A stretch of DNA of 64,000 nt, from assembly GCF_001890765.1 (NCBI RefSeq), contig NZ_KV878783.1, forward strand, positions 187,028-251,027, read 5' to 3'. The position numbers and the translations under genes were made by a program. The notes beneath the pieces are model-generated. The model did not search any database. It was not told where the DNA came from and saw only the letters and a list, made by a program, of their open reading frames with translations. Origin of the DNA: Spirulina major PCC 6313 (GTDB taxonomy: Bacteria > Cyanobacteriota > Cyanobacteriia > Cyanobacteriales > Spirulinaceae). This document shows, piece after piece, positions 12,157 through 34,314 of this stretch (position 1 is its first letter; the number at the start of each line of letters is the position of its first letter).

Positions 12157-12318
12157 GTGGTTTTGAGAATCAAGGTTTGCAGATTCAGCCTAGGGGAGGG
12201 CGATCGCGCCAAACTGTATCAAGCACCACGAAAAAGCGACCCAAGATGGTAATCATCTTGGGCCGTCTGTTCGCCATGAATGGTGGGGATTTAGCCCCGG
12301 CATCGGGGAGCCTTGGAA

Positions 12319-12410
12319 CGGAGAGGGAGGGATTCGAACCCTCGGTACGGTCTTGCGATTCGTACAACGGATTAGCAATCCGCCGCTTTCGACCACTCAG
12401 CCACCTCTCC
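12319..12410 (-). tRNA. trnS-GCT: tRNA-Ser (anticodon GCT)
   Basis: On the reverse strand the 92-nt sequence folds as a class II tRNA. The acceptor stem GGAGAGG pairs with CCTCTCC, the discriminator is G, the D-loop region is GAGTGGTCGAAAG, the anticodon arm GCGGATTGCTAATCCGT shows GCT, the variable arm is long as in serine tRNAs, and the T-arm contains GGTTCGAATCC. CCA is not encoded. It reads the serine codons AGC/AGU. Confidence 0.96.
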
Positions 12411-12490
12411 AGAGGTTGACGTATCGAACTAACAGTATAGGGGGAATGGTTGAGACTGTGCAAGGGTCACGAGCAATTATTTTTGACATC

Positions 12491-12895
12491 AGGACTAGGG
12501 AGTGCGAGCATCCTGCTCGCTACGGCTCCACCATCAGGACTAGGGAGTGCGAGCATCCTGCTCGCTACGGCTCCACCATCAAGACTAGGGAGTGCGAGCA
12601 TCCTGCTCGCTACGGCTCCACCATCAAGACTAGGGAGTGCGAGCAGGATGCTCGCTACGGCTCCACCATCAAGACTAGGGAGTGCGAGCAGGATGCTCGC
12701 TACGGCTCCACCATCAAGACTAGGGAGTGCGAGCAGGATGCTCGCTACGGCTCCACCATCAAGACTAGGGAGTGCGAGCAGGATGCTCGCTACGGCTCCA
12801 CCATCAGGACTAGGGAGTGCGAGCATCCTGCTCGCTACGGCTCCACCATCAAGACTAGGGAGTGCGAGCATCCTGCTCGCTACGGCTCCACCCCA
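12491..12895. repeat. Nine tandem 45-bp repeats containing a hairpin
   Basis: Nine contiguous 45-bp units start at 12491, 12536, 12581, 12626, 12671, 12716, 12761, 12806 and 12851. Each contains arms GCGAGCA / TGCTCGC around a 3-base loop. The loop is TCC in units 1-3, 8 and 9 but GGA, its reverse complement, in units 4-7. A second variable base (position 2, G or A) follows a different pattern. The block lies between tRNA-Ser and sfsA. Because 45 is divisible by three, open frames run through it on both strands, but these are compositional and not genes. Confidence 0.95.
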
Positions 12896-12982
12896 GCGGG
12901 CACGATGCCCACACTGCGATCGCGCTTGCATCACCGCGATACGCTACGATCCACGGGGCAAATCCTTACTCCCTGTGACGTT

Positions 12983-13741
12983 ATGACCCTTTGGCTCTAT
13001 CACTATCCGCCGCTCTTGGCGGGACGATTGATTAAACGCTACAAACGCTTTTTTGCGGAGATTGAACTGGATACGGGGGAGGTGATCACGGCCCATTGTC
13101 CGAATACGGGGCCGATGACGGGGGTGTATCAACCGGGGCAGCCGGTGCAGGTGTCGCGCAGTGATAACCCGAAACGGAAGCTGGCCTACACCTGGGAGTT
13201 GATTCAACTGGCAGACCCGGAGCCGGTTTGGGTGGGGGTAAATACGAATTTGCCGAATCGGATTATTAAGGCGGCGTTATTGAATCAGCAATTGCCGGAG
13301 TTGGCGGGGCGGTATTCTCAGGTGCGGCCGGAGGTGGCCTATGGGCGCGATCGCAAGAGTCGGATTGATTTTCTCCTCACCGATGACCAGGGTGAAAATC
13401 CGATCTATGTAGAGGTGAAAAATACCACTTGGACGACGGGACGGACGGCGGTTTTTCCCGATACGGTGACGACGCGGGGCCAGAAACATCTGCGGGAATT
13501 GATCGCGATCCGGTCGGAGGCGGCGGCGGTGATGCTCTATTTCATTAATCGGGGGGATTGTGGGGATTTTGCACCGGGCGATCGCGCTGATCCCACCTAT
13601 GGCGAACTGTTTCGGGAGGCGATCGCGGCGGGGGTGGAAATTTTGCCCTATCGGATGCAAGTGAGTCCGGCGGGGGTGGTGTTGGATGCGATCGCACCGA
13701 TTCAACCCCATCAACCGGCTGAAATTTTGAAACCAGGCTAA
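12983..13741 (+). CDS. sfsA: SfsA family protein (sugar fermentation stimulation homologue)
   Basis: The 252-residue protein matches SfsA, a DNA-binding or nuclease-like family first linked to maltose metabolism in E. coli whose biochemical role is unsettled. Seen here are the N-terminal OB-like part RYKRFFAEIELDTGEVITAHCPNTGPM and the C-terminal PD-(D/E)XK-like core SRIDFLLTD ... IYVEVKNTTW, with the Asp, Glu and Lys of a nuclease-type site, then FPDTVTTRGQKHL. The open frame extends upstream through the tandem repeats, but the family begins at LYHYPPLLAGRLIKR, so the ATG at 12983 is used. It has an approximately 15-residue C-terminal extension. Confidence 0.93.
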   Translation: MTLWLYHYPPLLAGRLIKRYKRFFAEIELDTGEVITAHCPNTGPMTGVYQPGQPVQVSRSDNPKRKLAYTWELIQLADPEPVWVGVNTNLPNRIIKAALLNQQLPELAGRYSQVRPEVAYGRDRKSRIDFLLTDDQGENPIYVEVKNTTWTTGRTAVFPDTVTTRGQKHLRELIAIRSEAAAVMLYFINRGDCGDFAPGDRADPTYGELFREAIAAGVEILPYRMQVSPAGVVLDAIAPIQPHQPAEILKPG

Positions 13742-34102: not shown

Positions 34103-34197
34103 TATAGCGGTTTTCATAAAATTGCGGTACAAAGATCCCCCTCAATCCCCCTTTTAAAGGGGGAAGTCGCGTTCTCATCTTTTCGCAATCCGCTATA
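34103..34197. repeat. MITE-like 95-bp inverted-repeat element
   Basis: Terminal inverted repeats TATAGCGG / CCGCTATA bound a 95-bp segment. Further in, ATTGCG pairs with CGCAAT, and the centre holds CCCCCTT / AAGGGGG. No coding capacity. This is the form of a miniature inverted-repeat element of the kind common in cyanobacterial genomes. Confidence 0.6.
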
Positions 34198-34227
34198 AAA
34201 CTTAAGCCAATAATTCGGTCATTTCGC

Positions 34228-34247
34228 AGTGCGAGCATCTTGCTCGC
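34228..34247. repeat. Dispersed hairpin repeat, single copy
   Basis: GCGAGCA-TCT-TGCTCGC is preceded by AGT: the same hairpin arms as in the tandem array at 12491-12895, with one loop change. It sits 31 bp from the MITE-like element. Confidence 0.7.
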
Positions 34248-34314
34248 TAGAGGTTGAGATCCTTTTCGTTGACCGGATGAAATCGTTAACCTCCATCAGC
34301 CCCTGGCTCTTTCG

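What the first reader, a model, noticed from the sequence alone, without database searches (positions are those of the whole stretch)
12491..12895. Nine tandem 45-bp repeats whose hairpin loop is flipped in four central copies
Units 1-3 and 8-9 have loop TCC and units 4-7 have GGA between the same perfect arms GCGAGCA/TGCTCGC. GGA is the reverse complement of TCC, so the hairpin has been inverted in place, or the loop converted by template switching, and the inverted form was then amplified. The second variable base (position 2 of the unit) does not follow the loop pattern, which argues for repeated recombination inside the array. The same hairpin occurs singly at 34228 with loop TCT. Position between tRNA-Ser and sfsA makes copy-number change neutral for coding.
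Basis: seen in the sequence. Interest (0 to 1): 0.72.

Follow-up and report, generated by a model that had tools for sequence, protein, structure and literature searches.

The report
REP hairpin array with flipped loops
A bacterium, probably a cyanobacterium, carries nine side-by-side copies of a common small DNA hairpin, and in the middle four the hairpin's tip has been turned round in place, most likely by a copying slip that also shows up in repeat arrays of another species.

Summary
Window 12490-12894 holds nine 45-bp units. The loop between perfect arms GCGAGCA/TGCTCGC is TCC in units 1-3, 8 and 9 and GGA in units 4-7.

The unit is one arm of a head-to-head dimer of a GTAG/GGAG-tagged REP (repetitive extragenic palindrome). 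The genome holds 96 hairpins of this shape; 80 have loop TCT. A congener has the same tRNA-Ser/sfsA order and no array.

Loop direction relative to the tail is strongly conserved. In 195 sampled genomes of the order, 1245 hairpins have loop TCN and 36 have NGA; all 36 are AGA or GGA, the reverse complements of TCT and TCC. Of 18 other three-change triplets only AAA occurs, four times. Two tandem REP arrays in genome G476 (by contig match Roseofilum halophilum) each contain one interior unit flipped TCT to AGA.

Best explanation: minute inversion of the loop by template switching at the hairpin, then tandem duplication. One flip, one substitution and six duplications suffice. REPs and loop inversion are each known. 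Their recurrent combination is the modest novelty.

The parts
12490..12894 (+). Nine tandem 45-bp REP units (CARGACTAGGGAGT-GCGAGCA-NNN-TGCTCGC-TACGGCTCCACCAT; last unit ends CCCC)
12490..12624 (+). Units 1-3, loop TCC
12625..12804 (+). Units 4-7, loop GGA (flipped relative to the GGAG tail and the TACGG flank)
12805..12894 (+). Units 8-9, loop TCC
12895..12915 (-). Inverted partner REP (TGTGGGCA-TCG-TGCCCGCT read on the minus strand), closing the array as a head-to-head dimer
12318..12411 (-). tRNA-Ser(GCT), read away from the array
12983..13741 (+). sfsA (sugar fermentation stimulation protein), read away from the array
   Evidence: Pfam SfsA and SfsA_N above cut-off; start inferred from relatives
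34231..34247 (+). Same arms with loop TCT, inside a dispersed element of roughly 110 bp

Best explanation
The unit is a GTAG/GGAG-tagged REP hairpin, one arm of a head-to-head REP dimer in the tRNA-Ser/sfsA spacer of this lineage. That arm plus spacer was tandemly duplicated. In one copy the polymerase switched templates between the two perfect 7-bp arms, or an equivalent hairpin intermediate was resolved, which inverted the 3-bp loop TCC to GGA and left arms and flanks unchanged. The flipped unit was then duplicated to four. Shown: family, dimer layout, absence in the one congener whose spacer is complete, near-fixed loop direction elsewhere, recurrence in other arrays, sufficiency of one flip. 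Inferred: the template-switch step itself, the order of events, and lack of a selected function.
For: In this genome 80 of 96 hairpins have TCT; the rest are TCC 5 (all array), GGA 5 (4 array, 1 at C2:2451731), TCG 3, TTT 1, GCT 1, CCT 1, so GGA is the only loop more than one change from TCT. In a sample of 195 genomes of the order: TCN 1245 in 49 genomes (sum) against NGA 36 in 15 genomes, 30 AGA and 6 GGA; 18 other three-change triplets give 4 hits, all AAA. Of 30 of the 36 flipped places read in context, 19 outside this genome have asymmetric flanks, 7 symmetric, 1 nearly symmetric, 3 are this array. Two tandem arrays in G476 (37-38 bp x 7.2; 45 bp x 5.8) each have one interior AGA unit among TCT units. 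In a second REP family beside a RAYT-like gene of this genome, six GTAG-tailed hairpins have loops ACGCT (3), ACACT, ACGTT and one AGCGT, the reverse complement of ACGCT. One flip, one substitution and six duplications reproduce the array. Predicted hairpin energy is -8.3 kcal/mol for both loops on both strands. In print: 3-bp spacer inversion in perfect inverted repeats of yeast, including TCC to GGA in PIM1 (PMC8604942, passages), and loop-only inversions in rRNA hairpins with bacterial examples (PMC8794818, passages).
Against: No reads or sister strains with the array were available. The yeast study saw spacer inversions only with arms over 9 bp; these arms are 7 bp. The GGA copy at C2:2451731 leaves open transfer between loci. 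The L163 array ends in an inverted REP with the identical 17-bp core, a possible conversion donor. G045, with 38 tandem pairs, has only two NGA loops, each the sole such hairpin in its 3-kb locus, so flips are not general in arrays. Six of the 27 three-change triplets and all two-change loops were not counted order-wide. Some of the 36 may be inherited copies or a subfamily.
Confidence: 0.72

Rival explanations
1. Ectopic gene conversion: a short tract from an oppositely oriented REP replaced the core of one unit.
For: Among the fetched stretches of this genome, 17 distinct contexts carry GGGAGCAGGATGCTCCC, which shares 13 bp with the flipped core. C2:2451731 carries the full GGA core between matching flanks. 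In L163 the closing inverted REP has the same core as the flipped unit.
Against: Outside the array the only copy of the full core with TCC/GGA among 36 places is C2:2451731, itself flipped relative to its flanks. The adjoining partner REP has other arms and reads CGA on the plus strand. L139 shows no inverted copy of its core in the fetched 3 kb. Thirteen to 17 bp is short for homologous recombination (general knowledge, not tested).
Confidence: 0.16
2. A transposase of the RAYT or IS200/IS605 kind cut and rejoined the hairpin in the opposite orientation.
For: The genome has an IS200/IS605 TnpA beside a TnpB and two RAYT-like genes below the NCBIfam cut-off.
Against: The RAYT-like genes lie among hairpins of another REP family. 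I know of no described product that inverts the stem-loop but not the tail (recalled, not searched). In Stenotrophomonas a reverse-complemented loop severely reduces cleavage (PMC8266576, passages).
Confidence: 0.05
3. Assembly error inside a 405-bp repeat.
For: No reads were examined. Tandem repeats are error-prone to assemble.
Against: The genome is in two contigs at 99.92% completeness. Flipped loops are exact reverse complements and occur in 15 genomes, most of them at dispersed copies.
Confidence: 0.04
4. Independent point mutations made TCC into GGA.
For: Point variants of the loop (TCC, TCG, TTT, GCT, CCT) do occur.
Against: No two-change loop was seen among the 96. Of 40 order-wide hits to 21 three-change triplets, 36 are AGA or GGA; with a cautious 19 of 23 the binomial chance is about 2e-16 under equal triplets, a rough figure because copies are not fully independent.
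Confidence: 0.01
5. A regulated flip that switches sfsA or tRNA-Ser expression.
For: The array lies in a divergent spacer.
Against: Both loop forms give the same predicted fold energy. The congener lacks the array. Promoters and recombinases were not searched for.
Confidence: 0.02

Closest known systems
GTAG-tagged REP families, including cyanobacterial ones (PMC3733652; section 5 and passages read, figure not held)
   Same: Tetranucleotide tail, 7-bp stem, short loop, head-to-head dimers, clusters of units reiterated in tandem with flanking DNA
   Different: The consensus of their families 12, 15 and 16 could not be compared because the figure is not held. Loop inversion is not mentioned in the parts read.
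Inverted-repeat spacer inversion by template switching (PMC8604942 and PMC8794818, passages)
   Same: Only the loop changes, to its reverse complement, between perfect arms; a 3-bp case TCC to GGA in yeast PIM1
   Different: Those cases are coding-gene or rRNA hairpins and, in yeast, arms over 9 bp. Here it is a dispersed REP inside a tandem array with 7-bp arms, and the flipped form was amplified.
Small hairpin-linked inversions in chloroplast genomes (listings only; details recalled)
   Same: Small inversions tied to hairpins
   Different: Plastid spacers, not REPs or tandem arrays
REPIN/BIME (PMC3116915, listing only; otherwise recalled)
   Same: Inverted REP pairs
   Different: Here one arm is present nine times. 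A cognate RAYT was not identified.

Membership tests
GTAG-tagged REP | Short palindrome with a GTAG-like tail at one end | tested here: met
   Of 90 distinct hairpin contexts in this genome the tails are GTAG 38, GGAG 26, GTCG 10, GTAA 9, GTCA 3, GCAG 2, GGAA 1, GGGG 1; the array tail is GGAG, a variant
GTAG-tagged REP | Many dispersed copies | tested here: met
   96 in this genome; TCN type with GNAG tail 1245 in 49 of 195 genomes
GTAG-tagged REP | Extragenic position | tested here: inconclusive
   The array lies between tRNA-Ser and sfsA; the other copies were not checked against genes
GTAG-tagged REP | Dimers and clusters | tested here: met
   Head-to-head partner at 12895-12915; the same layout at L029 and L037
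REPtron (REP plus cognate RAYT) | RAYT gene flanked by this REP | tested here: not met
   The two RAYT-like genes (51.7 and 71.7 bits, cut-off 80) sit among GTAG-GGGCG hairpins of another family; no hairpin of the present family was listed in those 4-kb stretches
Template-switch spacer inversion | Loop replaced by its exact reverse complement, arms and flanks kept | tested here: met
Template-switch spacer inversion | Ancestral and derived states placed on a tree of close strains | not testable with these tools
   The congeners held show no array
Site-specific invertible switch | Adjacent recombinase and two states in one culture | not tested
   No reads; no recombinase search made

The most novel reading that the evidence does not exclude
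Loop flipping is a recurrent inactivation of REPs. If the cognate RAYT reads tail and loop on one strand, as in Stenotrophomonas, a flipped loop makes a REP invisible to its transposase, so flips persist only in copies spread by tandem duplication or already immobile. REP arrays would then be natural recorders of template-switch rates.
Probability: 0.15. Interest if true: 0.6.

Novelty: new member of a known kind. Interest (0 to 1): 0.4.

Why it matters
Hundreds of near-identical hairpins with a polarity tag (the tail) and a 3-bp loop form a ready-made counter for a mutation class that is easily missed: in-place inversion at perfect inverted repeats. The order-wide counts (36 NGA to 1245 TCN, some of the 36 ambiguous) make its frequency and its effect on REP mobility testable.

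Tried and rejected
Searching plasmid records with the array region gave no match. The unit pattern AGTGCGAGCANNNTGCTCGCTACGG is in 1 of 59 genomes, this one only. My first view that the genome has no RAYT was wrong: PF01797 in the genome search gave one place, an IS200/IS605 TnpA beside TnpB, but the NCBIfam model finds two RAYT-like genes below its cut-off, and the L174 protein also passes PF01797 narrowly (23.9 bits, cut-off 23). I considered coding: the sfsA frame is open through the array (462-aa ORF), but 45 bp is 15 codons and relatives align only from the downstream start region, so I treat it as incidental. Rfam at gathering threshold finds only the tRNA in the window. Tandem pairs of the T-flanked hairpin occur in 3 of 386 phylum genomes; only the first places were listed, so mixed loops beyond those cannot be excluded. 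A genome-contig scan for a normal unit followed by a flipped one found one record; the window's own genome may be left out there, and the pattern does not cover GTGAGCA arms such as L139. Papers: no paper held both 'extragenic palindrom' and loop or spacer inversion; one search found none with these hairpin letters; some searches gave listings only, one of which (PMC3161906, not opened) holds both REP sequences and inversion. The library lacks most subscription journals.

Full report
Observation. The array is real: nine 45-bp units from 12490 to 12894 (TRF 12487-12892; units read out). The loops run TCC x3, GGA x4, TCC x2 between perfect 7-bp arms. Chance does not explain it: 0 of 100 shuffles reach the 11 matches.

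What the unit is. Its hairpin belongs to a genome-wide family. The pattern TGYGRGCANNNTGCYCRCT occurs 96 times in the 5.05-Mb genome: 80 TCT, 5 TCC, 5 GGA, 3 TCG, and one each of TTT, GCT and CCT. I fetched stretches around these places; after dropping identical contexts 90 remain, and the four bases before the hairpin are GTAG 38, GGAG 26, GTCG 10, GTAA 9, GTCA 3, GCAG 2, GGAA 1, GGGG 1 (printed with flanks, which kept 92 rows because it did not drop repeats within the window). This fits the GTAG-tagged REPs described for cyanobacteria and other phyla (PMC3733652, section 5 and passages). The array's last unit is followed at 12895-12915 by a REP in the opposite orientation, so tails point outward (head-to-head). 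The same layout, hairpin-TACGGCT-spacer-inverted hairpin, is found at L037 (loop TCT) and L029 (loop GGA). I read the array as one arm of such a dimer, amplified. That the organism is a cyanobacterium is an inference: Roseofilum halophilum, matched to G476 by contig number and coordinates, is listed in the same order.

History of the site. In congener G002 the upstream gene (amidase-like, recalled), tRNA-Ser and sfsA keep their order, with about 136 bp between the tRNA and the aligned sfsA start and no array. In G001 the contig ends 141 bp upstream of the sfsA match, with no array in that stretch, so it is uninformative beyond that. In G003 the spacer is about 414 bp and shows no such array. 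G001 and G002 are about 81-82% complete; they have no hit to the 96-copy pattern and 4 and 5 hits to a looser one with a mismatch. So the REPs probably entered after the split, or were lost in the relatives.

The flip. Relative to the tail, loop direction is nearly constant. In 195 genomes sampled from the order, GNAG-tailed hairpins have TCN 1245 times (49 genomes; sum) and NGA 36 times (15 genomes): 30 AGA and 6 GGA, no CGA or TGA. As a control, 18 other triplets that differ from TCT at all three positions give 4 hits in 3 genomes, all AAA, the reverse complement of TTT. Six further three-change triplets and the two-change loops were not counted. I read 30 of the 36 in context: 3 belong to this array, 19 have asymmetric flanks and are flips by the tail criterion, 7 have the tail on both sides and are ambiguous, 1 is nearly so. 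Two of the 19 (L138, L157) are nearly identical in flanks and probably one inherited event. Those in G033 and G419 may be an inherited subfamily.

Recurrence in arrays. L163 (G476:C130; by contig number and coordinates NZ_JAQPOK010000130.1, Roseofilum halophilum BLCC-M91) is a 37-38-bp array of REP units with one AGA unit between TCT units, and it ends in an inverted REP. L139 (G476:C36) is a 45-bp array with one AGA unit between TCT units. In each array the flipped loop is the reverse complement of that array's own loop, here TCC to GGA, there TCT to AGA. I take this as the strongest evidence for inversion in place, with the caveat that the inverted REP closing L163 has the identical core and could have been a donor. 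G045, which has 38 tandem pairs, has two NGA loops, each the only such hairpin in its 3-kb locus, so flips in arrays are not general. A further case in another REP family of this genome is at L174: among six GTAG-GGGCGCA hairpins around a RAYT-like gene, three loops are ACGCT and one is AGCGT.

Order of events. Writing each unit as variable base plus loop, the array is G-T G-T A-T A-F A-F A-F A-F G-T A-T (T = TCC, F = GGA). One substitution, one flip and six tandem duplications produce exactly this string. This is a sufficient history, not proven minimal. It needs no exchange between the two variable sites, although the other phase of reading shows all four combinations.

Mechanism. Template switching between inverted arms is reported to invert only the spacer: ten yeast cases, nine in already perfect repeats, one of them TCC to GGA (PMC8604942, passages), and loop-only inversions in rRNA hairpins, with bacterial examples in a figure legend (PMC8794818, passages). 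The predicted fold energy is unchanged by the flip (-8.3 kcal/mol in four strand versions). [quoted passage not shown] one full core at C2:2451731).

Consequence. In Stenotrophomonas a reverse-complemented loop severely affected cleavage and largely compromised binding by the REP transposase (PMC8266576, passages). By analogy a flipped REP would be a poor substrate. The same paper describes the upper half of the E. coli REP as a non-specific structural part, so this need not hold for every RAYT. In this genome the cognate transposase is unknown: one IS200/IS605 TnpA and two RAYT-like genes set among another REP family. Of 16 REP-bearing genomes that I chose, 12 have a RAYT above the curated cut-off; the window genome is not among them.

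Verdict. REP arrays and loop inversion are each known. Their repeated meeting in REP arrays was not found in print by the searches named (mostly listings), within a library that lacks many journals. It is a modest, testable finding rather than a new kind of system.

Noticed in passing
window about 34185-34310 (same copy as L017) and L018, L019, L021-L028, L031-L034, L036, L038, L039, L099: Dispersed element of roughly 110 bp carrying the hairpin between ATG...CAT borders; 19 copies aligned. Outside the borders, stems differ between copies but pair within a copy (17 of 19 scored, permutation p about 0.0002), as if inserted into existing hairpins or kept paired by selection.
   Followed up: partly
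L173:1660-2193 and L174:1151-2233 (G000:C2): Two RAYT-like genes whose open frames contain the GTAG-tagged hairpins of a different REP family.
   Followed up: partly
L174:2245: Hairpin with loop AGCGT where three neighbours with the same GTAG tail have ACGCT: a likely flip in a second REP family.
   Followed up: partly
L030 (G000:C2:2487385): Half of the dispersed element with its hairpin loop reversed relative to the surviving flank.
   Followed up: no
L029 (G000:C2:2451731): Single GGA-loop REP dimer with flanks close to those of the array unit on both sides.
   Followed up: partly
G053:C141:12246-12342: Three TGCGGGCA-GGA-TGCCCACT hairpins 39 bp apart.
   Followed up: no
L037 (G000:C2:4609.7-4610.3 kb): Dense cluster of mixed forward and inverted REPs with short partial copies.
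   Followed up: no
window 12353-13741: The sfsA frame stays open upstream through the whole array; 45 bp is 15 codons without stops in that frame.
   Followed up: partly
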